A program made the translations under genes and the position numbers. Source: Planctomycetales bacterium (lineage in GTDB: Bacteria; Planctomycetota; SZUA-567). Taken from it: a DNA stretch of 32,836 nt. The notes beneath the pieces are model-generated. The model had not been told where the DNA came from, did no database searches, and saw only the letters and a program-made list of their open reading frames with translations. This document shows, one piece after another, positions 6,566 through 31,726 of the stretch. The stretch is taken from NCBI GenBank assembly GCA_025997475.1, contig BNUQ01000020.1, forward strand, positions 1 through 32,836, given 5' to 3'. The stretch's first letter is position 1, and the number at the start of each line of letters is the position of its first letter.

Positions 6566-6598
6566 TCTTAATTATGAATTGTTAATGGTTAATTGTCC
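6566..6598. repeat. Heptad-repeat arm, solo (cmk/FIST boundary)
   Basis: Between two minus-strand genes lies one AT-rich arm built of 7-bp units of the form AATTNNN: AATTCTT, AATTATG, AATTGTT, AATGGTT, then AATTG. It belongs to the intergenic element family described at 21253, 27168 and 30226, but here the core and second arm are missing. Confidence 0.65.
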
Positions 6599-8077: not shown

Positions 8078-8539
8078 ATGGGAAATATCGTGTTACTGAT
8101 TGAGCGGTTAGAAACCGCCACCGATTTACCGCTACCGGCATATCAAACCGCCGGCGCCGCCGGTATGGATTTAGTCGCGGCGAATCCCAAGCCCATCAAA
8201 CTTGGCATCGGCAAAGTCGCGCTGATTCCGACGGGTTTGAAAGTTGAAATTCCGCTCGGTTATGAAGCGCAAATCCGCCCGCGTTCCGGTTTGGCGTTGA
8301 AATACGGCATTTTTATCGTCAACAGTCCGGGGACGATTGACGCCGATTATCGCGGCGAAATCGGCGTCATTCTCGGCAATTTTTCCGACACCGAATTTAT
8401 CGTGAAGCGCGGCGACCGCGTCGCGCAAATGGTCGTCCAAGCCGTCGTCCACGCCGAAATTAAAGTCGTGCCGCAATTGTCGGCGACCGCGAGAGGGCTG
8501 GGCGGTTTCGGGTCAACGGGGTTAGAGCGAAGAGTTTAG
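8078..8539 (+). CDS. dut: dUTPase (deoxyuridine 5'-triphosphate nucleotidohydrolase)
   Basis: A 153-residue trimeric-type dUTPase, which hydrolyses dUTP to dUMP and PPi, keeping uracil out of DNA and feeding dTMP synthesis. All five motifs are visible: AAGMDLVA (1), PRSGLALKYGI (2), NSPGTIDADYRGEIGVIL with catalytic Asp (3), RGDRVAQMVV (4) and ARGLGGFGSTG, the Gly-rich C-terminal arm (5). I chose the ATG at 8078 because AAGGCG lies about 7 bp upstream and the family begins just before motif 1. The frame is open further upstream (from 7970), but that part is low-complexity Lys/Phe-rich and unlikely coding. The final codons (ERRV-stop) lie inside the left arm of the heptad element at 8531, so the element has supplied the gene's last residues. 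Confidence 0.95.
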   Translation: MGNIVLLIERLETATDLPLPAYQTAGAAGMDLVAANPKPIKLGIGKVALIPTGLKVEIPLGYEAQIRPRSGLALKYGIFIVNSPGTIDADYRGEIGVILGNFSDTEFIVKRGDRVAQMVVQAVVHAEIKVVPQLSATARGLGGFGSTGLERRV

Positions 8540-8616
8540 CGTTGAGAAAGTGGAGTTTTATCTTTAAAGACGCGCGAAGCGCATCCGCCGCTTAACTCTC
8601 AACTCTAAACTCTCAA
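8531..8616. repeat. Heptad-armed inverted element, GAGTTTA type (dut/ftsK)
   Basis: The left arm is AGAGTTTAGCGTTGAG (8531-8546). The core is TGGAGTTTTATCTTTAAAG with CGCGCGAAGCGC. The right arm is built of AACTCTC/AACTCTA 7-mers (about 8593-8616). The arms are complementary but use GAGTTTA/GAGTTGA units, unlike the AATTAAC units of other copies. The left arm contains the dut stop codon (8537-8539). Confidence 0.8.
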
Positions 8617-8637
8617 ATGAAAACGGGAGAGATGCAG

Positions 8638-13156: not shown

Positions 13157-14398
13157 ATGCCAACCGCCCCCGCCGAGAAAAAGCGCATCGTGATTAGCAT
13201 CGGCGACCCGTCCGGCGTCGGACCGGAAGTCGTCGCCGCCGCGCTGTCGGCGGTGCGCGACCGCGCGCGGTTTCTGTTGGTCGGCAGTCATAAAATTTTT
13301 ACCCGCGCCGCGAAAATCGTCGGCTTGTCGCCCGCCGAGGTGAAACCGGTTGATTTCCCTTCGTTTAATAACGCAATGCAAATCTACGAACCGGCGCCGT
13401 GGAAAGGGGCGTTGCCGGTTTTCGGTCAGCCGAACGGCGCGACCGGCGCTTACAGTTTTCAGTGGGCGGAAGTCGCGGCGCGCCTCTGCACCAACGGCAC
13501 GGCGGACGCCGTGGTTACGGCGCCGATTTGCAAAGCGGCGTGGCACGCCGCCGGCAAAAATTACCCCGGACACACCGAACTGCTCGGCGCGATTGGCGAA
13601 AGCAACGAGCAACTGATGTTGTTGGCGACGCCGTTTGTCAACGGACAGGGTTTGCGCGTGGCGCTGGTTACCGCGCACACGCCGCTGGCGCAGGTGGCGG
13701 GGCAAATCAATCACGACAAAATCATTCACAGTTGCGTGGTGTTGCACAACGAATTGCAATCGCGGCTCGGCGTGTTTAATCCGCGCCTCGCGGTGCTGGG
13801 GTTAAATCCGCACGCCGGCGAAAACGGCGAAATCGGCGACGAAGAAGTCCGCGTCATCGCGCCGGCGGTCGCCGCGTTGCAACAGCACGGGCTGAATGTC
13901 GTCGGACCGTTGTCGGCGGACACGGCGTTTTTTCGGATGTGGCAGGAAAAAGCGTTCGACGCGATTTTGGCGATGTATCACGACCAAGGGTTGGCGCCGC
14001 TAAAAACGGTGGCGTTTTTCGGCGGTGTGAACATTACGCTGGGGCTGTCCATCGTCCGCACTTCGCCCGACCACGGCACGGCGTTTAATTTGGCGGGCAC
14101 CGGCGGCGCGAACGCCGAGTCGATGATTAACGCGATGGTCGTCGCGCTCGACATTCTCGAAACGGAAAAACGGGTGCGCCGCGCGCTCGCGAAAGACGGG
14201 CAGGCGAGCCGGCAAATCTTTGAGCGGGTTTTTCTGACGGCGCAAACGCTCGTGCCGGGCGTAACACCGGAAAATTTGTATCTGCTTTATCGGAGCGGCA
14301 AATTGGACGCGATATTGCCGGCGTTGGCGGCGGATTTGGGCTTCACGGAAGACGCCATTCGCCGAGCGTTCGCCGAAATGCTTCAACAGCAACGTTGA
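13157..14398 (+). CDS. pdxA: 4-hydroxythreonine-4-phosphate dehydrogenase PdxA, C-terminally extended
   Basis: A 413-residue enzyme of vitamin B6 (pyridoxal phosphate) synthesis; it oxidises 4-phosphohydroxy-L-threonine with NAD+, after which the product decarboxylates to 3-amino-1-hydroxyacetone phosphate. Family motifs seen: IVISIGDPSGVGPE at the N-terminus, TAPICKAAWHAAG...PGHTE, LVTAHTPL, GLNPHAGE, then GPLSADTAFF, MYHDQGLAPLK, GVNITLGLSIVRTSPDHGT. The divalent-metal histidines (in PGHTE/TAHTP, YHDQG and SPDHGT) are all kept. Standard PdxA ends about residue 335-340; here ~75 more residues follow (from about LETEKRVRRALAK), helical in character and of unknown role. The ribosome site is weak (GAGAAG). 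The family also includes PdxA2-like paralogues acting on other 4-phosphorylated acids, so the substrate is slightly uncertain. Confidence 0.92.
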   Translation: MPTAPAEKKRIVISIGDPSGVGPEVVAAALSAVRDRARFLLVGSHKIFTRAAKIVGLSPAEVKPVDFPSFNNAMQIYEPAPWKGALPVFGQPNGATGAYSFQWAEVAARLCTNGTADAVVTAPICKAAWHAAGKNYPGHTELLGAIGESNEQLMLLATPFVNGQGLRVALVTAHTPLAQVAGQINHDKIIHSCVVLHNELQSRLGVFNPRLAVLGLNPHAGENGEIGDEEVRVIAPAVAALQQHGLNVVGPLSADTAFFRMWQEKAFDAILAMYHDQGLAPLKTVAFFGGVNITLGLSIVRTSPDHGTAFNLAGTGGANAESMINAMVVALDILETEKRVRRALAKDGQASRQIFERVFLTAQTLVPGVTPENLYLLYRSGKLDAILPALAADLGFTEDAIRRAFAEMLQQQR

Positions 14399-14462
14399 GA
14401 GTTTAGAGTTTAGATAGCGGCAATGGAGTTTTTGATTTTCAAAACGCGCGAAGCGCGACCTT
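14397..14462. repeat. Heptad element, one arm plus core (after pdxA)
   Basis: GAGAGTTTAGAGTTTAGA (about 14398-14415), overlapping the end of the pdxA stop, leads into the core TGGAGTTTTTGATTTTC (14424-14440) and CGCGCGAAGCGCG (14445-14457). The second arm is absent; the convergent mntA-like gene begins shortly after. Confidence 0.75.
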
Positions 14463-19444: not shown

Positions 19445-19474
19445 TGGCTTCTCGTGCGAGTGGGCAGTTAAGAG

Positions 19475-19605
19475 CAATTAAAAATTAGAAATTAAAAATT
19501 ATGGGGTTTGATTTTCAAATTCGCTTCGCGCAATTTTCAATTTTCAACTTTCAACTTTCAACTTTCAACTTTCAACTTTTAACTTTTAACTTTTAACTTT
19601 TAACT
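19475..19605. repeat. Heptad-armed element with expanded arm, mixed heptads
   Basis: The left arm is AATTAAA/AATTAGA units (19477-19500). The core is GGGGTTTGATTTTCAAA (19503-19519) then TTCGCTTCGCGC (19520-19531). The right arm has four TTTCAAC units followed by four TTTTAAC units (about 19540-19603). The right arm has clearly grown by 7-bp steps with a single-base switch halfway. The outer flanks (GCAGTTA on the left, TAACTGC on the right) are also complementary. It lies between divergent dus and the zinc-ribbon gene; the rest of this ~310-bp gap (19606-19758) has no clear feature. Confidence 0.85.
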
Positions 19606-19758
19606 GCTCGCTTCCCACTAATTATGCCAAAAATGCGGCGGTAATGCTATCGCTGTTTGGCGTCGGTCTTTTTGATTGCCTTGCGCGGCGAAAAAAACAA
19701 AATTCGCCGACTTATGCTCGCGACGGCGGGCAACCGCCGCCTCGCTCACGTTTATCTT

Positions 19759-20676: not shown

Positions 20677-20680
20677 AGGG

Positions 20681-21036
20681 CAATTCACAATTAAGAATTG
20701 TGGAGTCGTTATCAAAAATGGCGCGAAGCGATGACAATCTAACTCCGCTAATCGTAATTAGAATGATTTTTCAAACGCTCTATTCAATTGCCACGCCCTT
20801 TAGGGCGTGGTCGGTGGTCAAGAGAAAAAGGGCTTTAGTTCCCCAAGGGAAAAAAGAATTTCGGCTAAAGCCGATGGAATAAAAACGCATTTTCCGCATT
20901 TTCTATTTTGGGCTAAAGCCCAATGTTTTAGGGGAAACGCTGACCACGCGCTAAAGCGCGTGGCAATTGAATAGAGCAACCGCATTGGGCAACAACTTAA
21001 TCCCAATCGCCAAAATTCTTAATTCTTAATTGTTAC
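20681..21036. repeat. Composite: heptad-armed element interrupted by a palindromic element
   Basis: The left arm AATTCAC-AATTAAG-AATTG (20682-20700) is followed by core-like TGGAGTCGTTATCAAAAA (20701-20718) and GGCGCGAAGCG. The complementary right arm, AATTCTT-AATTCTT-AATTGTT (about 21014-21034), is 300 bp away, beyond the palindromic element at 20778-20976. The simplest reading is that the palindromic element inserted into a heptad element. No protein gene is supported in this gap. Confidence 0.7.
20778..20976 (+). repeat. Palindromic intergenic element, copy 1
   Basis: The ends are inverted repeats: CTCTATTCAATTGCCACGC at the left (from 20778) and GCGTGGCAATTGAATAGAG at the right (to 20976), each carrying a small inner hairpin (CCACGCCCTTTAGGGCGTGG; CCACGCGCTAAAGCGCGTGG). 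Between them are further mini-palindromes: GGCTAAAGCC at about 20863 and GGGCTAAAGCCC at about 20910. The same parts recur at 22836 and, reversed, at 28690. Confidence 0.85.
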
Positions 21037-21061
21037 TCGTTCTCTCTGAAAGGACTAACTT

Positions 21062-21250
21062 ATGAATTATCGTTTATGGATGGCGGCGGGAGTCGCGGTG
21101 GCGGCGGGCGTCGGTTGCAACACGTCGATTAGCGACGCGCAACAGCCGATTCGCAACAATTCCACCGAAAACAATTACGCCAATCAAATGTCCGAAAGCA
21201 AAACCCGCGACGCCTTCGCGCCGCAACACGGCAACGCCGACCGACCGTAG
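21062..21250 (+). CDS. Small putative lipoprotein, 62 residues
   Basis: MNYRLWMAAGVAVAAGVGC is a short signal peptide with a lipobox-like end (AGVG-C19; the -3 Gly is unusual). The mature part (~44 residues) is polar, rich in Asn/Gln/Ser, with no Cys: NTSISDAQQPIRNNSTENNY and so on. AAAGGA lies 7-8 bp before the ATG. It resembles the many tiny lipid-anchored proteins of unknown role. A heptad element follows 2 bp after the stop. Confidence 0.65.
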   Translation: MNYRLWMAAGVAVAAGVGCNTSISDAQQPIRNNSTENNYANQMSESKTRDAFAPQHGNADRP

Positions 21251-21252
21251 AT

Positions 21253-21383
21253 GCAATTAACAATTAACAATTTACAATTAACAATCGTGGAGTTTGATGG
21301 TCAAAAATTCGCTTCGCGCGCGCTTGCGGATTTGCCCATAAAAATTCCTCAATTGTTAATTGTTAATTTTTAATTGTTAATTG
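21253..21383. repeat. Heptad-armed element, CAATTAA type (type example)
   Basis: The left arm is CAATTAA, CAATTAA, CAATTTA, CAATTAA, CAAT (21254-21285). The core is TGGAGTTTGATGGTCAAAAA (21288-21307) then TTCGCTTCGCGCGCGC and an A/T stretch ending AATTCCTC (to 21350). The right arm is (TTGTTAA)n with one TTTTTAA (about 21352-21383). The arms can form a ~33-bp imperfect stem. It sits between a lipoprotein gene and the aminotransferase ribosome site. Confidence 0.9.
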
Positions 21384-21430
21384 ATTTTTCCCCGCCGCCA
21401 AAAAACACCACCACTATTCGGGAGACGACT

Positions 21431-22723
21431 ATGCGTAGCAGTATTGTTCACGAGGGCGCGGTCAACATTAACTATGAAATTCGCCACATCGTCGAAGTCG
21501 GACAGCGGCTGATAAAAAGCGGACGGTCGATGACTTGGGAAAATATCGGCGACCCGATTCAGATGGGCGAAAAAGTCGCGCCGTGGATTCGCGCCGTCGT
21601 GCGCGACCTGCTCGAACAGGAAGTCGCGTGGGCGTATTGCCACAGCCGCGGGATTTTGGCAACGCGCGAATTTTTGGCGGGCGAGGTCAACAAGCGCGGC
21701 GGGGCGCAAGTAACCGCCGACGATATTTTATTCGTCAACGGCATCGCCGACGCGGTCGATAAAATCTACGACTTAATCCGTAAAGACGCGCGCGTGGTGA
21801 TGCCCAGCCCCAGTTATTCGACGCATCTGTCGAACGAGAGTAAGCGCGGCAGTTACGAAAACATCACCTTTCCGCTCGACCCGCAAAACGGCTGGCGCCC
21901 CGACCTCGACGAACTCCGCAATTTGGTCAAATACAATCCGCAAGTCGTCGCCATCGCGCTGGTCAATCCCGACAATCCGACGGGGATGGTCTATGCCGAG
22001 TCCGAGTTGCGCGAGATGGTGGCAATCGCGGCGAAATACGGACTGTTCATTATTTGCGACGAAATTTACACGCACCTGAATTTTACCGGGCGGGCGCGGC
22101 ATTTGAGCGAAATTATCGGCGACGTGCCGGCGATTGCCTTGCGCGGCATCAGCAAAGAATATCCGTGGCCCGGCGCGCGGTGCGGCTGGATTGAAATTCT
22201 GAACGCGCGGAAACATCCGGCGTTCGCCGAATATGTGAAAGCGCTCGGCACGGCGAAAATGTTGGAGGTCTGCGCGACGACGTTGCCGCAACTGTCGGTT
22301 CCGCTGGTCTTCGGCGACGCGCGTTATCCCGAACATTTACGGACGCGCGCCGCGAAATTCGCCGCGCGCGCCGAGGAAGTGGCGGAGATTTTCGGGGCGT
22401 TGCCCGAACTGCTTCTGCCCAAGCCGCAGGGCGCGTTTTATTATCCCATCGTCTTCAAAGACGGCGTGTTGAACGGACGCCAAACCTTGCCGATTGACCG
22501 CGCGCCGACGCGGGAAATTGTCGAGAGCATTGTGCAAGGCGTGGCTGACGACAAGCGGTTTGCCTATTACCTGATGGGGGCGGAGGGGATTTGCGTTACG
22601 CCGCTGTCGGGCTTCCACACGCCGTTGAACGGCTTCCGCCTGACGCTCCTGCGCGACGACGACGACCTGCGCCGCGCCACTTTCCGCCGCATCGCCGACG
22701 CGATTGCGCGGTATGTCAAATAA
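21431..22723 (+). CDS. PLP-dependent class I/II aminotransferase
   Basis: A 430-residue fold-type I aminotransferase that uses pyridoxal phosphate to move amino groups between amino and keto acids. Landmarks: NPDNPTGMV with the PLP-contact Asn at 179, ICDEIYTHLNF (the Asp contacting the PLP ring N), and the Schiff-base Lys at 242 in GISKEYPWPGARCGWIEI; the phosphate-binding Arg follows in WPGAR. The C-terminal small domain (ICVTPLSGF...NGFRLTLLRDD) contains the carboxylate-binding Arg. I chose the ATG at 21431 because GGGAG lies 6-7 bp upstream. It resembles alanine/aspartate-type enzymes; substrate unknown. A heptad arm starts at its stop codon. Confidence 0.9.
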   Translation: MRSSIVHEGAVNINYEIRHIVEVGQRLIKSGRSMTWENIGDPIQMGEKVAPWIRAVVRDLLEQEVAWAYCHSRGILATREFLAGEVNKRGGAQVTADDILFVNGIADAVDKIYDLIRKDARVVMPSPSYSTHLSNESKRGSYENITFPLDPQNGWRPDLDELRNLVKYNPQVVAIALVNPDNPTGMVYAESELREMVAIAAKYGLFIICDEIYTHLNFTGRARHLSEIIGDVPAIALRGISKEYPWPGARCGWIEILNARKHPAFAEYVKALGTAKMLEVCATTLPQLSVPLVFGDARYPEHLRTRAAKFAARAEEVAEIFGALPELLLPKPQGAFYYPIVFKDGVLNGRQTLPIDRAPTREIVESIVQGVADDKRFAYYLMGAEGICVTPLSGFHTPLNGFRLTLLRDDDDLRRATFRRIADAIARYVK

Positions 22724-22788
22724 TTACGAATTAAAAATTACGAATTAAGAGCGAAGCGAAGGTTAGTGGGCTTTCCAAATTTGTTGTT

Positions 22789-22812
22789 TCTCACGGAGGC
22801 GCGGCGGACACG
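22789..22812 (+). repeat. 24-bp companion sequence, copy A
   Basis: A 24-bp segment starting TCTCACGGAGGCG and ending GGCGGACACG. An exact reverse complement occurs at 28848-28871. In both places it lies about 23 bp outside the same end of a palindromic element, so it probably belongs to that element. Confidence 0.75.
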
Positions 22813-22835
22813 AAAAAATACGGATTGGAAATGTT

Positions 22836-23010
22836 ATATTCAATTGCCACGCGCTTTCGCGCGCGGTTGGCGTCTCTCTAAAAATTGGGCTTTAGCCCAA
22901 ACAAAAATTCGGCTAAAGCCGGTGAAATGAAACCACATTTTTTATTTTGGGCTAAAGCCCATTTCTTTTTTTGCCCGCTCACCACGCCTTAAAAGGCGTG
23001 GCAATTTAAT
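22836..23010 (+). repeat. Palindromic intergenic element, copy 2 (interrupted)
   Basis: Left end ATTCAATTGCCACGCGC (22838), inner GGGCTTTAGCCC and GGCTAAAGCCGG, then GGGCTAAAGCCC, and right end CCACGCCTTAAAAGGCGTGG followed by CAATTTAAT. The final AATAGAGC of the element resumes only at 23172, after the 161-bp insertion. Confidence 0.85.
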
Positions 23011-23171
23011 AGACCTGTTCTAAACCTACGAGTGAGCAAATTTTCGTGTCTAATTTTTCGTTTCGCAAGGAAAAATGACGAAGCAATACCGAGAGTATTG
23101 CAAGGAATTTTGACGCGGCGGAACGGAAAATTAGCCGAAAATTTGCCGCGAATTGGTTGTCGAACAGGTCT
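23011..23171. mobile_element. 161-bp MITE-like insertion with AAT target duplication
   Basis: The element starts AGACCTGTTC (23011-23020) and ends GAACAGGTCT (23162-23171), perfect 10-bp terminal inverted repeats. The similarity continues inward imperfectly: GCAAATTTTCG near the left end, CGAAAATTTGC near the right. It is flanked by AAT on both sides (23008-23010 and 23172-23174). Removing the element and one AAT restores the end of a palindromic element as seen in copy 1 (AATAGAGCAACCGC). It has no coding capacity. The terminal repeat differs by one base from the sequence 8 bp past the IS5-type transposase at the window start, so that element is the likely source of transposase. Confidence 0.88.
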
Positions 23172-23436
23172 AATAGAGCAACCGCGTTTGACAACAAGCG
23201 CTGATTAAACACCAAAATTCGTAATGGCTCTTTCTCCGACGGTGCGGTTATAGCCGGAGTTGGCTAAAAACCGCGCCGCCAAAGAAACCGTAGCGCGACT
23301 TGTAGTTTTTCCGCGCGTTTTGCAATTCAATTTTTTGGTAAAAAAGACAATTTTTGATTTTTATTTGCCAATGAAAAATATAGTCAAAGACCGCCGCCGC
23401 CCGCCGCACTGCAATCGTCGCCGGTCAAGATACCGC

Positions 23437-24879
23437 CTACACCTTAATCTGTTGCCCTAATTGCCTTTTGCCGTAGCGCCGTTTCAGCGGCGCGACGCAT
23501 TGTTTGACGAAGTCATCGACCTGCGCCGGCGCGCGCCCGACATACAGCGACGGGTCGGCGAGGCGGCGGAAATCGTGGGCAATCGCGGCGAACGCCGCGT
23601 CGTTTTGCAGGCGCGATAATAAATCGTTGTCGCGCCCGTGTTGCTTCACTTCCGCCGCCGCCGCTTGCGAATGTTCGCGGATTTTTTCGTGCAATTCCTG
23701 CCGGTCGCCGCCCGCTTTCACCGCCGCCATCAAGATATTTTCCGTCATCATAAACGGCAATTCCGCCGTTAAATTTCGCTCGATAATTTTCGGATAAACC
23801 ACCAAGCCGTTCGCGACGTTGGCGCAAAGTTCAAGGATTGCGTCGGCGGCGAGAAACGCCTCCGGCAAAGTTAAGCGGCGGTTGGCGGAGTCGTCGAGCG
23901 TCCGCTCCAACCATTGCGTCGCGTGCGTCGCGTAGGAGTTCGCCGGCAAACTCATCAGGAAGCGCGCGAGCGAGCAAATCCGTTCACTGCGCATCGGATT
24001 GCGTTTATACGCCATCGCCGAGGAGCCGATTTGACTTTTCTCGAACGGCTCTTCGATTTCTTTTTTGCCGGCGAGCAGGCGCAAATCGGTGGCGAATTTA
24101 TGGGCGCTTTCGCCGAGACCGGCAAGCGTGGCGAGAATTTGCGAGTCGAGTTTGCGCGTGTAGGTCTGACCGGTTACGGACAGCAATTTGGCGAAGCCGC
24201 ATTTTTTCAGCAGTGATTTATTCAGCGCGGCAATCTTTTTTTCGTCGCCGTTAAACAGTTCCATAAAACTCGCCTGCGTGCCGGTGGTGCCGGTCGCGCC
24301 GCGCAACGGCAATTCCGCGATGCGGCGTTCGATTTCGGCTAAATCCAGCGCCAAATCCTGCGCCCACAACGTCGCGCGTTTGCCGACGGTGGTCGGTTGC
24401 GCCGGTTGAAAATGGGTAAAACCGAGCGTCGGCAAAGCGCGGTGTTTTTGCGCAAAATCGGCGAGCGCGGCAAGCACGGCGGCGGTTTTCGCGGCAAGCA
24501 AGCGCAACGCTTCGCGCATAATTATCAGGTCGCCGTTGTCGGTAACGTAGCAACTGGTCGCGCCGAGGTGAATAATCGGCGCGGCGACCGGCGCGACCAA
24601 TCCGAACGCGTAAACGTGCGCCATTACGTCGTGGCGGACTTTTTTCTCGCGCTCGGCGATGACGTTCCAATCAATGTTGGCGATATTTTTTTTCAGCGCG
24701 GCGATTTGCGCGGGCGTGATTTTCAGCCCCTGTTCGCGCTCCGCCTCGGCGAGATAGACCCATAATTCGCGCCACGTTTCGGTGCGGCGGCGCATCGAAA
24801 ACAGCGCCGCCATCTCGCGCGAGGCGTAACGGGTGATTAACGGATTTTGGTAGAGGTCTTCTTCGGCGGCGGCGGTCAT
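23437..24879 (-). CDS. purB: Adenylosuccinate lyase
   Basis: A 480-residue lyase of the fumarase/aspartase superfamily acting twice in purine synthesis: SAICAR to AICAR, and adenylosuccinate to AMP, releasing fumarate each time. Motifs: NPLITRYASREM at the start, VRHDVMAHVYAF, HLGATSCYVTDN, TLGFTHFQPAQPTTVGKR with the general-acid His, and the signature loop GSSAMAYKRNPMRSE with catalytic Ser. C-terminal domain with YVGRAPAQVDDFV. AAAGGA lies 9-10 bp before the ATG. Monocistronic and divergent from the PpiD-like gene, with a heptad element in between. Length and motifs are those of the eukaryote-like/long purB class. Confidence 0.96.
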   Translation of the reverse strand: MTAAAEEDLYQNPLITRYASREMAALFSMRRRTETWRELWVYLAEAEREQGLKITPAQIAALKKNIANIDWNVIAEREKKVRHDVMAHVYAFGLVAPVAAPIIHLGATSCYVTDNGDLIIMREALRLLAAKTAAVLAALADFAQKHRALPTLGFTHFQPAQPTTVGKRATLWAQDLALDLAEIERRIAELPLRGATGTTGTQASFMELFNGDEKKIAALNKSLLKKCGFAKLLSVTGQTYTRKLDSQILATLAGLGESAHKFATDLRLLAGKKEIEEPFEKSQIGSSAMAYKRNPMRSERICSLARFLMSLPANSYATHATQWLERTLDDSANRRLTLPEAFLAADAILELCANVANGLVVYPKIIERNLTAELPFMMTENILMAAVKAGGDRQELHEKIREHSQAAAAEVKQHGRDNDLLSRLQNDAAFAAIAHDFRRLADPSLYVGRAPAQVDDFVKQCVAPLKRRYGKRQLGQQIKV

Positions 24880-24931
24880 AGGCGGGGTTCCTTTTTGGGG
24901 GATTGAGGTTAAGCGCTCTGAACGCAGTTTT

Positions 24932-25047
24932 TAGAGTTCAGAGTTTAGAGTTTAGAGTTTAGAGTTTAGCGGTGGAAGCGCTTCGCGCACTCTAAAAATT
25001 AAAACTCCACTCTCTCCACTCTAAACTCTAAACTCTCAACTCTAAAT
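24932..25047. repeat. Heptad-armed element, GAGTTTA type, core reversed (purB/ppiD)
   Basis: The left arm is GAGTTCA then four GAGTTTA (about 24935-24969). The core is on the minus strand: GCGGTGGAAGCGCTTCGCGC (24969-24988) and, reversed, TGGAGTTTTAATTTTTAGAG. The right arm has CTCTAAA, CTCTAAA, CTCTCAA and CTCTAAA units (25020-25047). The arms are complementary and made of a heptad shared with the elements at 8531 and 14397. It lies between divergent promoters. Confidence 0.88.
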
Positions 25048-25171
25048 ATGTCCGCCCAAACTTGCAACGACCGGCGGAGTGCGCATAATGACGCGCCCGT
25101 TTGGTCTTTTTCGCGCCAAAATCGGCGCCTGCGCCGTAAATCACTTCAACCCCTCACATAAGGAATTACTC

Positions 25172-27163
25172 GTGGCTCTGCAAAAATTCCGCGACCGGCA
25201 AAAACTCATCTATTGGGGCATTGCGATTGTCGTTATTCCTTCGTTTGTTTTGCTCGGTTTTTCCGGGCTGTTTATGGGCGACGGCGGGTCGCAAACCGTC
25301 GGCTCCGCTTTCGGCAAAAAACTTTCCTATAACGAATTCGACCAATTTCAACGCCGCCTGTTCGGCATCAATCACGGGCGTCCGTCGTATTTCGGCGCGC
25401 TGACTTTCAACCAACAGTTTCAGCCGATTACCAACGAAGGCGTTACCGCCTATCTGCTGTATGCGATGACCGCCGACGCCAAACGGCACGGGCTGGAAGT
25501 AACCGACGAGGAAGTCGGCACGTTCATTCGCGCCCAAGTCGGCTACGCCGGCAACGACGGCAAAGAATTTCAAGACCGGATTAAGCGCGCGCTCACCTCC
25601 CGCGCCGTGCCGCTCGACGACCTTTACAGTTATCAACTCGCCGTGCGCGAACATTTATTGGCGCGGAAATTTCTCGCGCTACTCGACAATTCGTTGGTTA
25701 TTCCCGCGCCGCTCGCCGAATTGCAAAACGCGCAGGAACATTCGACCTACACCGGCAAACGCGCCGTTGTAACTTTTGCCTCGCAACGCGAAGCCGCCGC
25801 CGCCGAAATCGCGCAACTCGACGATGCCGCGCTCACCGCCCGCGCCGCCGATTTTATCCGCTCGCATCAAACCGCCGCCAATCGCGCCCGCTATCCGTTT
25901 TTGTGGAATAAAAGCCGCTGGCAACTCGACTATGTTTTCGCGCCGTTTATTGTGTTAGGCAAAGAGCCGAATATCACCGACGCGCAAATCGCCGACTATT
26001 ACAACGCCAATAAAGAGCAATTCGCCGAGGCGCCCACCGCTGAAAATGCGGCAACGTCCACGCCCGCCGCGACCACGCCCGAAAAGACGTCGGCGACCGC
26101 GACGGATGCGGAAAAATTGCCGACCGCGACGGCGTATCAACCGCTTGCCGCCGTGCGCGAAAAAATTGTCGCCGAATTGCGTCAGCGGGCGCGGACGGCG
26201 CAGGCGCGCGAGGTTTTGCGCCGCGATTTTCGGGATTTTATCCGGCAACGCGACCGGACGGGCGAGCATACCGACATCGTAACGGTCGCCGAAATTAACG
26301 CCGACCCGCGCTTGCAAGAATTAGGGCTGAAAGCGGGCAACACCGGCGCGGCGCAAACCGCCGAAGAAATTTTTACCGCCGACAACGCGGATGAAAACCG
26401 GCGCGGCTTCGCGGTCGCGACGTTTATGCTCGATTATCTCGACCGGGAAATTACGCAAGCGTCCGACGCGGCGGCGACGCCGGAAGCGAAACAAAAAGCG
26501 GTCGCGGAAATTCTGTTGCCGTTCCAACGCGATTTTCGCGGGATGGCAATTCAGGGCGTTGACAATCAATCGCCGGTGGGCGGCGACAACGGCTTGCTTG
26601 AATATCGCGTCGTTGACTATCGCGCCGGCTCGGCGAAAGAATTGGTCGTGGACGGCGAGCGCGACGAGGCGTTGCTCGCGGCGGTGAAAGAGGCGCTGAT
26701 TGGCGAACTTGCGGAAAAGAAGGCGTTGGACGAAGCGGCGAGCATCGCCGCCGCGTGGCAAAAAAACGAGACCGACGATAAATATCCGCCGCAAACGCGC
26801 ACGGCGGCGCAACTCGACTCGGCGGCGTGGCGCGAATTGCCGAACTTGACCATCGGCGCGGTAACCGTGCCGCAGACGGTCGCGCAACCGGAGGCGGGTT
26901 ATGAAGTCGCGCAGTTGCTCGCGGTCAACATTCCGCCGGTCAACGACGCCGCGCCGGAAGTGGCGAATTTGCGCCGTTATGAAACGCAGGCGGGGCGGAG
27001 CAATCTGCGTTACGCGCCGGAAGTTATCCCGCAAATGAACGGTCTGATTCCGATTGGCGCGCGGGCGTTCAACTATTTCCAAGAAAATTTCACCAACGGT
27101 AATTTCACCTTCAAGCCGATTTTCCAGAGCGGCGCAGACGAGCATGAAGGACACAGCCACTAA
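25172..27163 (+). CDS. PpiD/SurA-like periplasmic folding factor
   Basis: About 663 residues. I chose the GTG at 25172 because AAGGA lies 7 bp upstream (25160-25164) and the product then begins with ALQKFRDRQKLIYW and a single N-terminal transmembrane anchor (residues ~12-34, LIYWGIAIVVIPSFVLLGFS); a start at 25079 would add 31 unlike residues. The region after the anchor (GKKLSYNEFDQFQRRLFG and onward) is the SurA_N/PpiD-type chaperone domain, which binds unfolded outer-membrane and secreted proteins. A Thr/Ala-rich insert follows (~290-330). The parvulin isomerase part is hard to recognise: only SPVGGDNGLLEYR (near 470) recalls its GG-D-G pattern. The C-terminus is His/Glu-rich (DEHEGHSH) and could bind metal. 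Best read as a PpiD-like chaperone with degenerate or no isomerase activity. Confidence 0.75.
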   Translation: MALQKFRDRQKLIYWGIAIVVIPSFVLLGFSGLFMGDGGSQTVGSAFGKKLSYNEFDQFQRRLFGINHGRPSYFGALTFNQQFQPITNEGVTAYLLYAMTADAKRHGLEVTDEEVGTFIRAQVGYAGNDGKEFQDRIKRALTSRAVPLDDLYSYQLAVREHLLARKFLALLDNSLVIPAPLAELQNAQEHSTYTGKRAVVTFASQREAAAAEIAQLDDAALTARAADFIRSHQTAANRARYPFLWNKSRWQLDYVFAPFIVLGKEPNITDAQIADYYNANKEQFAEAPTAENAATSTPAATTPEKTSATATDAEKLPTATAYQPLAAVREKIVAELRQRARTAQAREVLRRDFRDFIRQRDRTGEHTDIVTVAEINADPRLQELGLKAGNTGAAQTAEEIFTADNADENRRGFAVATFMLDYLDREITQASDAAATPEAKQKAVAEILLPFQRDFRGMAIQGVDNQSPVGGDNGLLEYRVVDYRAGSAKELVVDGERDEALLAAVKEALIGELAEKKALDEAASIAAAWQKNETDDKYPPQTRTAAQLDSAAWRELPNLTIGAVTVPQTVAQPEAGYEVAQLLAVNIPPVNDAAPEVANLRRYETQAGRSNLRYAPEVIPQMNGLIPIGARAFNYFQENFTNGNFTFKPIFQSGADEHEGHSH

Positions 27164-27167
27164 ACCC

Positions 27168-27288
27168 AATTAACAATTACCAATTAACAATTAACAATGG
27201 TGGAACTTAGTGGTCAAAATCGCTTCGCGTAATTCTGATAATTAAATCCTCAATTGTTAATTGCTAATTGTTAATTGTTAATTGCTCT
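27168..27288. repeat. Heptad-armed element, CAATTAA type (ppiD/EAL)
   Basis: The left arm is CAATTAA-CAATTAC-CAATTAA-CAATTAA-CAAT (27168-27199). The core is TGGAACTTAGTGGTCAAAA (27202-27220) and TCGCTTCGCG (27221-27230). The right arm is TTGTTAA units with one TTGCTAA (about 27254-27283). It begins 5 bp after the stop codon and ends 18 bp before the next start. Confidence 0.9.
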
Positions 27289-27305
27289 TAAAACGAGAGC
27301 CGCCG

Positions 27306-28529
27306 ATGAACATCGTCCCCGCCAACGTCCTTGCTTATTTTCAGCCAATCTTCGCGATTGACACCGGCGAGACCCACGCTTTCGAGGTTTTGGGGCGTTA
27401 TCAGACCGCCGGCGGGGTCATTTCGTTGGGACCGTTTTTTGAGGATAAAAATACGGCGGGCGCCGACGCGCTGACCGTTGACCGCCTGGTGCGGCGCGAC
27501 GCCTTGCGCCGTTACGCCGCCGCCGACAGCGAGGAATTTTTATTCATCAATTTGCGGCTCGGCTGGATTGCCCAGTTCGCCGACCGCCCCGAAGAAATGC
27601 CGACGCTGAAATGGGCGCAAGAATTAGGCGTGAACCCGCGAAAATTGGTGATTGAAATCACCGAAGAAGAATTTAACGCCGACATTCGCGAGTTCTCGGC
27701 GGTGCTCGCCTACTACAAACATCTCGGTTGTCGCGTCGCCATCGACGACTACGGCAAGGAGGCGAGCAACCTCGACCGCTTGGCGCGGTTGGAGCCGAGT
27801 TATCTCAAAATCAATATGGACTACATTCACCGGTGCGGCAATCTTTATTACCGCGAATATCTGCGCGCGCTAATTTCTTTCGCGAAACAGGTCGGCATCG
27901 AAGTCATTTGCGAAGGCGTGGAAACGGAGAAACAACTCGCCGCCTGCATCGCCGCCGGCGGACGCTATTATCAGGGTTATTTGCTGGCGCGACCGCAACC
28001 GGAGTTGCGCCGCGACGCGGTCAATCAAGAAATTTTTCGCGGCGTGTTCGACCGCACGATTGAGGATTTGCACGGCGCCGTTACGATGCGCAATGTCTTG
28101 CGGCGCGACTGGGAGCAACGGTTGCAGACCTATCTCGCGGCGCGGACTTTTGTCGCGCAAGACGACGCGGACGCTTATCTCGGCGCGTTGTGCCGGGATA
28201 TGATTGCCGACATCCGGCACGTCAAGCGAATGTATATTTGCGACCGGCGCGGCAAGCAATTGTCCTCGAATTTCGAGAACCACCGCGGGACGGTTACGGC
28301 GCTGGATTATCGCGAGCGCAACTGGGCGTGGCGCGGCTATTTTCAGGATTTCACCGAAATTTACGCGGCGGGCGGGCGCAACCACATCACCGGTTTTTAT
28401 ATCGACGCCACCTCGCAAGAAGAAATTTACACCTATATCCACGCGCTCGACGCGGAGACGTTTTTGTTCATCGACCTGCAAAATTACCTCAAATGGTTCG
28501 AGAAAAACGCGGCGGAGAAGGGCGATTAA
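27306..28529 (+). CDS. EAL-domain c-di-GMP phosphodiesterase-like protein with YkuI-type C-terminus
   Basis: A 407-residue cytoplasmic protein. The N-terminal EAL domain (about 10-245) would hydrolyse c-di-GMP to pGpG. The key metal and catalytic positions appear kept: E27 (motif reads EVL), N82, E117 in IEITEE, D147-D148 in IDDYG, K168 in YLKIN, E203 in CEGVE, and YYQGYLLARP. Loop 6 reads DDYGKEASN rather than the usual DDFGTGYSS, so activity could be altered. The C-terminal ~140 residues match the YkuI_C pattern: KRMYICDRRGKQLSSN, RNWAWRGYF, FLFIDLQNYL, a PAS-like sensor fold known from Bacillus YkuI, which is also about 407 residues. GAGAG lies 6-7 bp before the ATG. No diguanylate cyclase is nearby. 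Confidence 0.88.
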   Translation: MNIVPANVLAYFQPIFAIDTGETHAFEVLGRYQTAGGVISLGPFFEDKNTAGADALTVDRLVRRDALRRYAAADSEEFLFINLRLGWIAQFADRPEEMPTLKWAQELGVNPRKLVIEITEEEFNADIREFSAVLAYYKHLGCRVAIDDYGKEASNLDRLARLEPSYLKINMDYIHRCGNLYYREYLRALISFAKQVGIEVICEGVETEKQLAACIAAGGRYYQGYLLARPQPELRRDAVNQEIFRGVFDRTIEDLHGAVTMRNVLRRDWEQRLQTYLAARTFVAQDDADAYLGALCRDMIADIRHVKRMYICDRRGKQLSSNFENHRGTVTALDYRERNWAWRGYFQDFTEIYAAGGRNHITGFYIDATSQEEIYTYIHALDAETFLFIDLQNYLKWFEKNAAEKGD

Positions 28530-28689
28530 CAATTAACAATTAACAATTAACAATTAAGAATTAAGAATTAAGAATGATGTTACGCGATTTTGTCATCATC
28601 GACTCCGCTAAAAGTCCCGACCAGGGCAAGTCCCGACTGGGACGAAATAATGCATAATCGGCGGTGAAGCGAAGCGGCGTTGGCGGGCA

Positions 28690-28825
28690 AAAAAAGAAAC
28701 GGGCTTTAGCCCAAAATAAAAAATATGGTTTCATTCCACCGGCTTTAGCCGAAAGGTTGTTTGGGCTAAAGCCCTTTCTTCTTGACCGCCCACCACGCCC
28801 TGAAGGGCGTGGCAATTGAATAGAG
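28690..28825 (-). repeat. Palindromic intergenic element, copy 3 (reversed, truncated)
   Basis: GGGCTTTAGCCCAAAATAAA, ATGGTTTCATTCCACCGGC and TTTGGGCTAAAGCCC match the reverse complement of copy 2 closely. The end CCACGCCCTGAAGGGCGTGG with CAATTGAATAGAG (to 28825) is complete, but the opposite hairpin end is missing. Confidence 0.85.
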
Positions 28826-28847
28826 CCTTTCCCCATCGGTGCTTCTC

Positions 28848-28871
28848 CGTGTCCGCCGCGCCTCCGTGAGA
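28848..28871 (-). repeat. 24-bp companion sequence, copy B
   Basis: Exact reverse complement of 22789-22812, placed 22 bp outside the intact end of palindromic copy 3. Confidence 0.75.
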
Positions 28872-28887
28872 AAAAAAAATGTTCGGA

Positions 28888-28899
28888 AACAGGTCTAAT
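28888..28899 (+). repeat. Solo MITE/IS end, AACAGGTCT + AAT
   Basis: Nine bases of the 10-bp terminal repeat followed by AAT; the first base is A instead of G. No partner end seen. Confidence 0.45.
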
Positions 28900-28967
28900 T
28901 AAATTCCGAAAGTCGTAATTTTTAATTGTTAATTGTTAATTGCTCTTGCCCGCAAAGGAGAAAACGG

Positions 28968-30224
28968 ATGCCCGCTTACATTGAAAATATCTCGGTGTTG
29001 GAGGAATTGATTTGGCGCAAAGTCCACGAAACGCCGGCGATTGACGCCTACACCAACCTTTACGATTTGCGCTTCGGGGGCAACGGCTTCGTCTGGGGCT
29101 TGGATAATTTGCTGACCAGCGACCAACTGGTCGCCGAATTTTTCCGCAACGCGCCGCGTCCCGCGTCCGAACGGCTGACCCACGCCGGTTTTACCGCGCT
29201 CGATAAAGCGGCGCAAGCCGATTTGGTTTGGGAGTATTTGTTTCGCCGGCGCTCGCCGCTCAGCGAAGCGGCGCGCGGCGTCCTGACGACGCTCGGACTG
29301 CTCAACCTCGACCCGAACCGGCGCGACCTTGCCGCGTATCGCGAGACGTTTTCGCATTATGAATTACAGCCCCACTTGCGGCGCGTTCTGAAAATCGCCA
29401 ACCTCAAAGCCGTTGTGATGAACAACGACCCGCTCGGCGACACCGAGCGCGAGGTCTGGAATCACGACACGTCGCGCACCGAGCCGTTTTTGGCGTCGCT
29501 CGGTTTGGACGGATTGTTGAGTTGGGAAATGAGCCAGCCGATTCTGCAAAATCAGGGCTTCGCGGTCGAGCGCGAACTCGAAAAAGAATCCTACGACGGC
29601 GTGATTAAATTCCTCGAACATTGGTTGCAAAAAACCAACGCGGTTTATTTTTCGCTGTCGGTCAACGGCGGTTTCGATTTATTCGCGAAAAAGAACAGCA
29701 CGATGCGCCTAATGCGCAAATGTATTTTGCCGTTCTGCGAGCGCCACCGCGTGCCGCTGGCGTTGGTGATTGGCGCGCAATACGACAGCGACAGCATCGG
29801 CGCGGCGGCGGACGCCGCGGCGCTGGTTTCGGTGGAAGAACTCTGCGCGAGTTTTCCCGACAATAAATTTTTGGTCGCGGCGTTGTCGAGCCACAATCAA
29901 CGTTTGCTCTGCGGCGTGGCGCATCGCTTCACCAATTTGATGCCGTTCGGGAGCGCGTGGAACACGCCGAGCGTGATGCAAGGCACGATGAAAATCGGCT
30001 TGGAATTATTGGGCGACAGTTTCATTCCGCATTACAGCGGCGCGGCGGTGCTGGAACAACTGCTCTACCGCTGGGCGCACGCGCGCTGGACGCTCGGCAA
30101 AACGTTGCAACAACAATATCTCGACCTGCACCGCACCGGCTGGCGCGTAACCGAAGAAGAAATCAGCCGCGACGTTCACAATATGTTGCAGGGGAATTTT
30201 TTGCGATTTATCGACAGCGAATAA
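28968..30224 (+). CDS. Uronate-isomerase-like protein lacking the catalytic residues
   Basis: A 418-residue member of the glucuronate/uronate isomerase (UxaC) branch of the amidohydrolase superfamily, judged by many remembered landmarks: WGLDNLLTSDQLVAEFFR, VVMNNDPLGD, CERHRVPLALVIGAQ, SFPDNKFLVAALSSHNQ, FTNLMPFG, LELLGDSFIPHYSGAAVLEQ, YRWAHARWTLGKTL, and GWRVTEEEISRDVHNMLQGNF. True family members have HxH after the first strand, and HSDAR near the end with a catalytic Asp and Arg. Here these read Y28-T-N30 and Y356-S-G358-A-A360. The metal-binding and catalytic side chains are thus gone while the fold-defining sequence is intact, so it is probably not an isomerase. AAAGGAG lies 7 bp before the ATG. 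No uronate-catabolism gene is nearby. Confidence 0.75.
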   Translation: MPAYIENISVLEELIWRKVHETPAIDAYTNLYDLRFGGNGFVWGLDNLLTSDQLVAEFFRNAPRPASERLTHAGFTALDKAAQADLVWEYLFRRRSPLSEAARGVLTTLGLLNLDPNRRDLAAYRETFSHYELQPHLRRVLKIANLKAVVMNNDPLGDTEREVWNHDTSRTEPFLASLGLDGLLSWEMSQPILQNQGFAVERELEKESYDGVIKFLEHWLQKTNAVYFSLSVNGGFDLFAKKNSTMRLMRKCILPFCERHRVPLALVIGAQYDSDSIGAAADAAALVSVEELCASFPDNKFLVAALSSHNQRLLCGVAHRFTNLMPFGSAWNTPSVMQGTMKIGLELLGDSFIPHYSGAAVLEQLLYRWAHARWTLGKTLQQQYLDLHRTGWRVTEEEISRDVHNMLQGNFLRFIDSE

Positions 30225-30225
30225 A

Positions 30226-30337
30226 ACAATTAACAATTAACAATTGTGGAGTTTGATTTTCAAAATCGCTTCGCGCATTTTGATAAATAGTTCCTTAAAA
30301 ATAATTGTAAATTGTAAATTGTTAATTGTTAATTGCT
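30226..30337. repeat. Heptad-armed element, CAATTAA type (UxaC-like/DUF362)
   Basis: The left arm is CAATTAA-CAATTAA-CAATTG (30228-30246). The core is the cleanest in the window: TGGAGTTTGATTTTCAAAA (30247-30265) then TCGCTTCGCGC (30266-30276) and ATTTTGATAAATAGTTCC. The right arm is TTGTAAA, TTGTAAA, TTGTTAA, TTGTTAA, TTG (about 30305-30335). It starts right after the upstream stop codon. Confidence 0.9.
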
Positions 30338-30366
30338 CTTTCAAAACCCTTAACGGAGGAATCACG

Positions 30367-31479
30367 ATGAAAAAAGCACCGGTCTATTTCACGGATATGC
30401 GATGCGGCATGGGCGACAGTTTGCTGACCAAATTGGCGCGGCTCATCAAAAAAGCCGGCATCGGCGACATCAACTTTCAACACCAATACACCGCCATTAA
30501 AATCCATTTCGGCGAGCCGGGCAATCTGTCGTTTTTGCGCCCGAACTTCGCCAAAGTCGTCGCCGATTACGTCCGCGACAAAGGCGGCTTGCCGTTTTTG
30601 ACCGACTGCAACACGCTTTACGTCGGACGGCGCAACAACGCCGTCGCGCACCTCGCCGCCGCGACCGAAAACGGCTACTCGCCGCTGACCACTGGTTGCG
30701 AAAACATCATCGCCGACGGCTTGCGCGGCACCGACGACCTTGAAGTGCCGGTGCGTAACGGCGAATACTGTAAAACCGCGCGCATCGGGCGCGCCGTAAT
30801 GGACGCCGACATTTTCATTTCCCTCAGCCATTTCAAGGGACACGAATGCACCGGCTTCGGCGGCGCGCTGAAAAATATCGGTATGGGTTGCGGCAGTCGC
30901 GCCGGCAAAATGGCGATGCATCACCAAGGCAAGCCGCACGTCGTCGCCGCGAAGTGCGTCGGTTGCGGGCGATGCGCCAAAGAGTGCAACGAAAACGCCA
31001 TCGTCGTAACCGCGAAAAAAGCGTCCATCAACCACGCCCAATGCGTCGGATGCGGGCGGTGCATCGGCGCGTGCAATTTGCACGCGATTGAGCCGGCGGG
31101 CGACGGCACGAACGCGACGCTGAACTGCAAAATCGCGGAATACGCGCAGGCGGTGTTGGACGGGCGCCCGCATTTTCACATCAGCATTGTCAATCAAGTG
31201 TCGCCGTTTTGCGATTGCCACGGCGAGAACGACGCGGCGGTTATTCCCGACATCGGGATGTTCGCGAGTTTCGACCCGGTGGCGTTGGACAAGGCGTGCA
31301 TCGACGCGGCGAACGCCGCGCCGGAAATTAAGACGAGCATTTTGTCCGAGCGCGACGCCGCCAAGACCGGCGACCATTTCACCAAAATCCACCCGACGAC
31401 GGACTGGCGCAGTCAAATCACGCACGCGGGAAAAATCGGTCTCGGCACCGGCGATTACGAATTGAAAACGGTGAAATAA
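30367..31479 (+). CDS. DUF362 protein with two [4Fe-4S] ferredoxin motifs
   Basis: A 370-residue cytoplasmic iron-sulfur protein. The N-terminal DUF362 part includes KIHFGEPGNLSFLRP, GGLPFLTDCNTLYVGRRNN, and ADIFISLSHFKGHECTGFGG, then LKNIGMGCGSRAGK. A bacterial ferredoxin insert follows with two complete CxxCxxCxxxC motifs, CVGCGRCAKEC from residue 197 and CVGCGRCIGAC from residue 226, each able to hold a [4Fe-4S] cluster. The DUF362 fold resumes with FCDCHGENDAAVIPDIGMFAS and FDPVALDKACIDAAN. No established reaction; the architecture suggests electron transfer linked to an unknown substrate. GGAGGA lies 5-6 bp before the ATG. Confidence 0.9.
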   Translation: MKKAPVYFTDMRCGMGDSLLTKLARLIKKAGIGDINFQHQYTAIKIHFGEPGNLSFLRPNFAKVVADYVRDKGGLPFLTDCNTLYVGRRNNAVAHLAAATENGYSPLTTGCENIIADGLRGTDDLEVPVRNGEYCKTARIGRAVMDADIFISLSHFKGHECTGFGGALKNIGMGCGSRAGKMAMHHQGKPHVVAAKCVGCGRCAKECNENAIVVTAKKASINHAQCVGCGRCIGACNLHAIEPAGDGTNATLNCKIAEYAQAVLDGRPHFHISIVNQVSPFCDCHGENDAAVIPDIGMFASFDPVALDKACIDAANAAPEIKTSILSERDAAKTGDHFTKIHPTTDWRSQITHAGKIGLGTGDYELKTVK

Positions 31480-31575
31480 GAGTTGGTCGCCGGTATTTTT
31501 TAGTCGGCAGTTGCGGTTTTTCACCGGCAAATCCGCAAGTGTGCGCGGAGCGAATTTTTGACCGCCAAACTAACA

Positions 31576-31602
31576 AGGGGCGTAGCGAACGGCTACGCCC
31601 CT
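31576..31602. terminator. Hairpin between convergent genes
   Basis: AGGGGCGTAGC (31576-31586), loop GAACG, GCTACGCCCCT (31592-31602): a perfect 11-bp stem between the convergent DUF362 and amidase genes. T-tracts are weak on both sides (CGTTTAGG on the plus strand), so termination, probably bidirectional, is likely but not certain. Confidence 0.55.
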
Positions 31603-31687
31603 CGTTTAGGTCGTGTTCCCTTCACCGGTCTTCTCCCCGCCGAAAGCGCATATAAACCGCGTGGCAGATTCGTTTCGCGTATGATAA

Positions 31688-31722
31688 TTACTCCACCATT
31701 CTTAATTATGAATGGTTAATTG
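31688..31722. repeat. Heptad arm plus reversed core, next to amidase stop
   Basis: On the minus strand, leaving the amidase gene: AATTAACC-ATTCATAATTAAG, then GGTGGAGTAATTATC and ACGCGAAACG, an arm followed by a diverged core. The far arm is not visible. Confidence 0.55.
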
Positions 31723-31726
31723 CCGT

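What the first reader, a model, noticed from the sequence alone, without database searches (positions are those of the whole stretch)
21253..30337. Family of intergenic elements with complementary heptad-repeat arms whose sequence changes but whose core does not
Seen directly: at about a dozen gene boundaries (8531, 14397, 19475, 20681, 21253, 24932, 27168, 28530, 30226; weaker at 6566, 7824, 13061, 22722, 31688) there is a left arm of 7-bp tandem units, a core of about TGGAGTTTGATTTTCAAA plus TCGCTTCGCGC, and often a right arm complementary to the left. The heptad differs between loci (AATTAAC, AATTACG/AATTAAA, GAGTTTA, TTTCAAC/TTTTAAC), yet within most elements the arms match each other. Arms covarying while the core stays fixed is what selection for a stem, or templated copying of one arm into the other, would give. 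Heptamer tandem repeats are known from cyanobacteria (STRR), but as far as I recall not as paired arms around a common core.
Basis: partly seen in the sequence, partly recalled or inferred. Interest (0 to 1): 0.78.

Follow-up and report, generated by a model that had tools for sequence, protein, structure and literature searches.

The report
Heptad-armed intergenic hairpins with flipping cores
A planctomycete genus carries several hundred small hairpin elements between its genes, each with matching arms of repeated 7-letter units around a shared core; the element appears to spread as one piece, its core often ends up turned around, and similar hairpins with other 7-letter units occur elsewhere in the phylum.

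Summary
The core occurs 241 times in the window's genome (1 in the backward control) and 347 times in a sister species (2). In 2.36 Mb sampled from both genomes there are 434 heptad hairpins, 4 with their midpoint inside a called gene. Neighbouring heptad arrays converge 206 times and diverge once. Own arms pair better than swapped arms.

Arms match mainly because arms and core are inherited together: core type predicts arm type in the sister genome, and 40 of 434 elements have a near-identical same-genome copy elsewhere. Orthologous type-A elements with common-descent cores show no concerted arm change (n=9, p=0.60); core stems do not covary. Template switching probably acts: 7 of 22 common-descent cores lie inverted in the sister species.

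Hairpins abut stop codons (median 2 nt) but are about as common in divergent as in other intergenic regions, against a terminator role. Heptad hairpins of the same AGTT-first polarity occur in 25 further genomes of 392 in the phylum, the opposite polarity in one other. I read them as a MITE/REPIN-like element of new build; mobilising enzyme unknown.

The parts
8531..8624 (+). Type-C hairpin (GAGTTNA heptads); core from 8551; an orthologous element is in the sister species (locus L071)
14394..14460 (+). GTTTAGA left arm (14394-14414) and type-C-like core; no right arm
19476..19605 (+). Chimeric element: AATTAAA left arm, type-A core at 19502, non-matching CAACTTT right array
   Evidence: z -1.4
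20682..21035 (.). Interrupted element: short AATT left arm, core to about 20755, right arm at 21014-21035 behind other palindromes
21254..21383 (+). Complete type-A hairpin with the longer core (TTCGCTTCGCGCGCGCTTGCGGATTTGCC)
22722..22748 (.). Solo AATTACG/AATTAAA array, no core
24930..25046 (-). Complete type-C hairpin, core in reverse orientation (core start 25009 on minus strand)
27167..27284 (+). Complete type-A hairpin with diverged core
28525..28942 (.). Left arm 28525-28575 and right arm 28916-28942 of a heptad hairpin whose interior is occupied by other repeats (GATGTTACGCG... onwards)
30225..30335 (+). Complete type-A hairpin with the exact consensus core at 30247

Best explanation
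These are miniature, non-coding, palindromic elements (94-130 bp for the complete copies in the window): a heptad array (3-6 units in nearly all type-A arms), a core of mostly 40-65 bp, then the complementary heptads. They spread within the genome as whole units, as several subfamilies that differ in arms and core together, and persist only between genes. At most sites they are then inherited vertically. The arms match because both were copied with the element from a subfamily source; occasional DNA-polymerase template switching between the arms re-homogenises them and inverts the core. Decay by loss of one arm leaves solo heptad arrays. Shown: copy number, polarity, near-identical dispersed copies, core inversion, intergenic confinement, conservation of sites. 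Inferred: replicative mobility and its enzyme, and template switching as the cause of inversion.
For: 241 and 347 cores in two species of one genus. Same-genome copies at least 90% identical over the whole element, away from the locus, for 40 of 434 elements (299 of 434 at >=80%); in the 12 pairs printed the flanks look unrelated beyond a few bases, and one pair shares the same non-matching arms. Core similarity predicts arm type in the sister genome: 0.766 of three nearest neighbours against 0.511 (maximum 0.632 of 2000 permutations; 87 elements); in the window's genome 0.749 against 0.705, not significant (57 elements). Cores inverted in 7 of 22 orthologous pairs of common descent. Arrays converge 206 times against 1 divergent. 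4 of 434 hairpins inside genes. Of 257 orthologous intergenic regions heptads are in both species in 143, neither in 72, one in 42 (odds ratio 23.4). A left-arm-only remnant opposite an intact sister copy (C38:13576).
Against: No target duplication was evident by eye; only 10 of 163 mapped sites lack heptads in the sister, so few clean empty sites exist and gain cannot be polarised against loss. No partner transposase is established: I looked at 15 of the 31 larger arm-flanked intervals and saw no obvious transposase among the translated starts of called genes (no family search run), but my gene caller found nothing in five of them, and one of those five (C10:25361-26054) does hold a Y1 transposase. 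I read that one as a separate insertion in a right arm, since GTTACGCG ends and other palindromes lie between; a link is not excluded. The conservation of sites (77% of heptad-bearing intergenic regions shared) is more than a restless parasite would show and leaves room for a function.
Confidence: 0.6

Rival explanations
1. RNA hairpins kept by selection, acting as terminators, 3'-end stabilisers or processing signals at gene ends; arms covary because the stem is needed.
For: Hairpins start a median of 2 nt from an adjacent stop codon; in co-directional pairs the stop is the closer gene end in 279 of 323. Strong predicted folds for 5 of 6 window elements. Heptad sites conserved between species (143 of 185 heptad-bearing regions).
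Against: Divergent regions, which hold no 3' ends, carry heptads as often: 136 of 214, against 675 of 1155 co-directional and 101 of 195 convergent; detected hairpins 47 of 214, 314 of 1155 and 46 of 195. Core orientation is close to random relative to co-directional neighbours (A 71 with, 81 against; C 42 with, 52 against). No own-half advantage in core pairing; no concerted arm change in type-A common-descent pairs. The terminator scan of window 19000-32000 did not exceed shuffles (35 against 32.1).
Confidence: 0.2
2. In-place rewriting: one arm is repeatedly copied into the other by quasipalindrome template switching, and this rather than inheritance with the element is the main reason why arms match.
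For: 7 of 22 common-descent cores inverted. Two short-loop pairs (C1:81477, C12:11195) share a similar loop while both arms differ between species, AAGTT against GAGTT. Type-C pairs show some concert (n=13, p=0.043). In-register unit identity from the outer end slightly exceeds order-shuffled arms (103 of 5000 as high).
Against: Type A, nine pairs: p=0.60. The type-C value rests largely on those two short-loop pairs; one of them (C12:11195) lies below the score cut and was added by hand, and the loop of the other recurs at another locus (C10:20239), so common descent is uncertain. The register effect vanishes when arms are aligned from the core end (4967 of 5000 shuffles as high). Non-matching arms persist in both species (C34:14418) and occur in dispersed copies.
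Confidence: 0.25
3. Heptad arms are written by a telomerase-like or defence reverse transcriptase (DRT10 type) from an RNA template.
For: The two species use different heptad dialects. DRT10 makes tandem-repeat DNA (PMC12632851, abstract and outline seen).
Against: No RVT_1 match in the window's genome (84.6% complete) and one match just over the cut-off in the sister (30.1 against 29.6 bits).
Confidence: 0.03

Closest known systems
MITEs (miniature inverted-repeat transposable elements; definition recalled)
   Same: Short, non-coding, inverted ends, many intergenic copies with apparently unrelated flanks.
   Different: Inverted ends are tandem heptad arrays of variable unit number; no target duplication or autonomous partner established.
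REPINs / REP doublets with RAYT transposases (PMC3116915, abstract seen; PMC3733652, passages seen)
   Same: Two inverted halves with a spacer forming an extragenic hairpin; GTAG REPs often supply the stop codon of a flanking ORF (PMC3733652).
   Different: Halves are direct heptad arrays rather than tagged REP palindromes; the three Y1/RAYT-like genes found sit amid other palindromes.
TAACTGA heptad arrays of Beggiatoaceae, cyanobacteria and Bacteroidetes (PMC4679880: abstract, section 10 and passages read)
   Same: Intergenic tandem heptads, often mixed with related heptads; CAGTTAT-type units also occur in other planctomycetes found here.
   Different: Described as direct arrays, with one inverted set of 170; here 410 of 701 arrays are in convergent pairs. 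In 300 kb of two cyanobacterial plasmids I saw 13 arrays with one or two possible pairs by eye.
GGGNATC heptads of Xanthomonas and Nostoc (PMC4692102, passages read)
   Same: Intergenic heptad tandem repeats.
   Different: The passages read treat them as G-quadruplex arrays, not paired arms.
Template switching at quasipalindromes (PMC8604942 and PMC8794818, passages read)
   Same: Predicts arm homogenisation and spacer inversion, the second seen clearly here.
   Different: A mutational process, not an element; the inverted spacers here are 40-55 bp, against 2-5 bp of substitution in the yeast study.

Membership tests
MITE | Terminal inverted repeats | tested here: met
   206 convergent against 1 divergent neighbouring array pairs
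MITE | Many non-coding copies with unrelated flanks | tested here: met
   434 hairpins; 40 with >=90% identical same-genome copies elsewhere; flanks judged by eye in 12 pairs
MITE | Target-site duplication | tested here: inconclusive
   None evident by eye in the empty sites printed, but few are clean and no statistical test was made
MITE | Autonomous partner with the same ends | tested here: inconclusive
   15 of 31 larger arm-flanked intervals looked at; no obvious transposase among called genes, but one interval holds the Y1 transposase, read as a separate insertion; whole genome not searched
REPIN/REP | Built from short REP palindromes tagged GTAG or CGTC | tested here: not met
   Arms are direct heptads such as AATTNNN, (A/G)AGTTNA, CAGTGNN, GGGAAAA; TAGTTGG arms contain the letters GTAG but are not palindromes
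REPIN/REP | Associated RAYT gene beside cognate copies | tested here: inconclusive
   Y1_Tnp 2 in G000, 1 in G013, each amid other palindromes; one (L126) lies between heptad arrays
Heptad tandem arrays (TAACTGA type) | Intergenic direct arrays of 7-bp units | tested here: met
   732 period-7 arrays with GC below 0.6 in 1.58 Mb; heptad pairs 0.068 per kb in coding sequence
Heptad tandem arrays (TAACTGA type) | Arrays unpaired | tested here: not met
   410 of 701 arrays are in convergent pairs
Programmed invertible switches | Dedicated recombinase and a functional consequence of orientation | not tested
   Inversion seen; orientation close to random relative to genes; no recombinase search made

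The most novel reading that the evidence does not exclude
Heptad hairpins are an unrecognised, phylum-wide class of bacterial intergenic element with a strict grammar (N-A-R-T-K-N-N units on the 5' arm of either strand, complement on the 3' arm) and interchangeable cores, mobilised by one kind of enzyme that reads the heptad arm; the unpaired heptad arrays described in cyanobacteria, Beggiatoaceae and Bacteroidetes are solo arms left over from it.
Probability: 0.2. Interest if true: 0.85.

Novelty: new variant of a known kind. Interest (0 to 1): 0.62.

Why it matters
Heptad repeats have been noted in several bacterial phyla without an agreed origin (PMC4679880, PMC4692102, passages). Here they are the arms of a hairpin element with strict polarity, and similar hairpins occur in 25 further genomes of the phylum, which gives that question an anatomy that can be tested. 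About a third of common-descent cores (7 of 22) are inverted between sister species, so these genomes may offer many parallel natural records of template switching between inverted repeats. Heptads are also very common in the intergenic DNA (143 of 257 orthologous regions hold them in both species), so promoter, terminator or small-RNA annotation in this genus must reckon with them.

Tried and rejected
Tried without result: Rfam match in the window (none at the gathering score); reverse-transcriptase origin (unsupported); cyanobacterial plasmids as further cases of paired arms (13 arrays, one or two possible pairs); autonomous copies flanked by arms (15 of 31 intervals); target duplications (by eye).

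Corrected on the way: an early junction count (core in both 4, one side 35, neither 56 of 95 junctions) suggested very high turnover. It counted only alignment gaps and a strict core. The class-free hairpin detector (both 46, one-sided 52 of 257) and the lenient heptad test (both 143, one-sided 42 of 257) show that most sites are shared; by eye about half of the 16 short 'empty' sites hold elements the detector missed. The idea that co-occupancy without common descent means replacement in place was dropped: 20.0 jointly occupied regions are expected by chance with the strict detector. RNAalifold on all type-A cores gave no structure (which ended in an error); one search used the fold of the consensus instead. 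The tool's backward control also matched (for example G098 29+22, G300 14+11), as did that (for example G029 14+21); by its form it is itself an inverted heptad pair of other units, so I compared with the opposite-polarity search and did not examine those matches. The listing was cut in the output, so I read only part of its 108 core places.
Full report
What is there. The window is contig C20 of a 2.39-Mb, 84.6%-complete genome. Its closest named relative found is a Planctomycetota MAG, Hs463_bin132 (PdxA 96% identical), which by identical match places is the held sister species G013. That this MAG series is from termite guts is my recollection, not from a call. The core TGGAGTTTGATTTTCAAA (up to 3 mismatches) occurs 241 times in the window's genome against 1 backward control, and 347 times in G013 against 2. 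A stricter core pattern is absent from the 14 other genomes searched in the family, and the type-A and type-C hairpin patterns occur in 2 of 18 genomes of the order, both in this genus.

Anatomy. In 1.58 Mb of both genomes there are 732 period-7 arrays with GC below 0.6; the commonest units are AATTAAC, AATTAAA, GAGTTGA, GAGTTTA, AAGTTGA and AATTAAG; 701 contain AATT or AGT, and most of the other 31 are of the AAAAGGG kind. I sum the units up as N-A-R-T-K-N-N; that is my reading, not a computed fit. Among neighbouring arrays within 150 bp, 206 pairs are convergent, 1 divergent, 16 in the same direction and 7 involve an array of undecided direction. The spacer peaks at 40-60 bp; 160 of 205 convergent pairs hold a loose GGAGTTT-like core (8-mer, one mismatch, either strand, so perhaps a tenth by chance). 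Arms of type A mostly have 4-5 units, with a weak outer consensus AAAGAGC and nothing conserved beyond (113 elements). Core lineages occur with different arms: type-A arms also carry type-C-like cores, and many TAGTTGG hairpins lie concentrically inside AATTACG arms (by eye). A class-free detector found 207 and 227 hairpins in 1.22 and 1.14 Mb, against 3 and 8 direct-orientation pairs under similar thresholds.

Arms against swapped arms. Own arms score 17.9, swapped 11.2 (90 elements); type A alone 17.3 against 14.6. By units, 109 type-A elements share 45% of NNN triplets in register from the outer end against 26% for swapped partners (maximum 36% in 5000); with unit order shuffled within the same element it is 42%, and 103 of 5000 such shuffles reach the observed value. 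Aligned from the core end there is no register effect. So own arms share composition, with little position-by-position matching.

Why the arms match. In G013, elements with similar cores have similar arms (0.766 against 0.511; 87 elements with clear AAA or AAC arms), and the core consensus differs between AAA-armed and AAC-armed elements. In G000 this was not significant (0.749 against 0.705; 57 elements). 23 of the 167 elements in that call had mixed or AAG arms and were left out. 40 of 434 elements have a same-genome copy at least 90% identical over the whole element; in the 12 pairs printed the flanks look unrelated beyond a few bases. Arms thus travel with the element. The species differ in dialect: 35 of 101 type-C hairpins in G000 have mostly AAGTT units on both arms, 1 of 82 in G013, as expected if different subfamilies expanded.

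Orthologous comparison. Among 385 reciprocal-best orthologues (median 95.6% identity) there are 257 orthologous intergenic regions. A lenient heptad test finds heptads in both species in 143, neither in 72 and one in 42. Where each species has one class, the class is the same in 98 of 116 (52.3 expected) and different in 18. Of 163 hairpins whose flanks map to the sister, 153 meet heptads there. Of 40 same-class element pairs in jointly occupied regions (a few elements appear twice), 22 have cores of common descent by a score and rank rule (at most 5 of 81-122 others score as well): 15 in the same orientation and 7 inverted (5 of type C, 2 of type A; five of the seven are the best match of all). 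By that rule about one of the remaining pairs could qualify by chance. Arms in such pairs change independently for type A (n=9, p=0.60) and weakly together for type C (n=13, p=0.043, resting on two short-loop pairs, one of them below the cut). Over all jointly occupied pairs the change is concerted (A n=19, p=0.0006; C n=20, p=0.004), as whole-element differences would give.

Place and possible role. 4 of 434 hairpins have their midpoint in a called gene (own simple gene caller; count). From an adjacent stop codon the median distance is 2 nt, from an adjacent start 33; in 30 of 47 convergent cases both stops lie within 15 nt. Stop-codon usage beside elements is close to the genome's. Heptads occur in 675 of 1155 co-directional, 101 of 195 convergent and 136 of 214 divergent regions, so presence does not follow gene ends. 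Cores point with co-directional neighbours 71 and 42 times, against them 81 and 52 times (types A, C). Core pairing shows no covariation: 0.770 own against 0.773 swapped halves (A, 187 distinct rows), 0.841 against 0.840 (C, 121 rows); cells changed on both sides, 92 against 87.1 and 40 against 35.9, also lie within the swapped range. I conclude that hairpins sit where insertions do least harm, in short spaces between stop and next start, rather than serving as terminators; a secondary RNA role is not excluded.

Beyond the genus. The generic pattern AGTT heptads, 20-50 bp, AACT heptads matches in 27 of 392 genomes of the phylum (22 of 267 genera); 25 lie outside this genus with 145 matches (overlapping registers and both strands counted; my sum of the table), with other heptads and unrelated loops. 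The opposite polarity matches in 3 of 392: 5 matches in the two genus members and 1 in G266, which is not one of the 25. Of ten such loci that could be read in the printed orientation (13 tried), six lie 3-24 nt from a stop by a simple ORF finder, and two appear inside an ORF.

Comparison with the known. See the membership table. The nearest kinds are MITEs and REPINs. The tagged-palindrome criterion of REPs was tested and not met; MITE criteria of inverted ends and dispersed copies are met, while target duplication and partner are open. I found no description of heptad arrays as paired arms around a core in the open PMC library (listings capped, few papers opened). Hence a new variant of a known kind.

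Noticed in passing
window 23008-23175; G000 C2:24320-24482, C2:32990-33153, C8:10912-11077: A second miniature element of about 165 bp with ends TAGACCTGTTCGA...TCGAACAGGTCTA, present/absent between the two species with clean-looking empty sites; ends also at window 7809, 18437, 28888.
   Followed up: partly
window 28579; G000 C1:113705-114037; L126 about 850-2000: Elements with ends GTTACGCG...CGCGTAAC lie inside heptad arrays with the same heptad direction on both sides, as if heptad arrays were their target; one holds a Y1 (RAYT-like) transposase with CCCCACGC palindromes.
   Followed up: no
G013 C101 opposite G000 C1:106843 and C1:112146: Elements built of CACGAATTA and CACAGAGGCACAGAG short repeats in inverted halves, present in one species only; repeats of this look are, from recollection, common in other phyla.
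   Followed up: no
G000 C2:49150, G013 C23:7531, C5:7505: Hairpins nested concentrically: an outer heptad type on both arms and a different inner type, the sister having a different interior at the same site.
   Followed up: partly
window 440-1384: PD-(D/E)XK nuclease family transposase gene (PF12784, E 4.5e-71).
   Followed up: no
window 32634-32836: Perfect 76-bp tandem repeat of 2.7 copies running to the contig end.
   Followed up: no
window 15558-18374: 938-codon reading frame without Pfam match, holding 15-, 48- and 60-bp tandem repeats.
   Followed up: no
window 19540-19568, 21257-21380, 27170-27281, 28526-28575, 30237-30332: Heptad arms read as TTAACA-17-AACAAT and the like, so a sigma-70 consensus scan scores promoters there (21 found in 19000-32000 against 7.1 in shuffles; 16 of the 21 overlap elements by my reading).
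   Followed up: no
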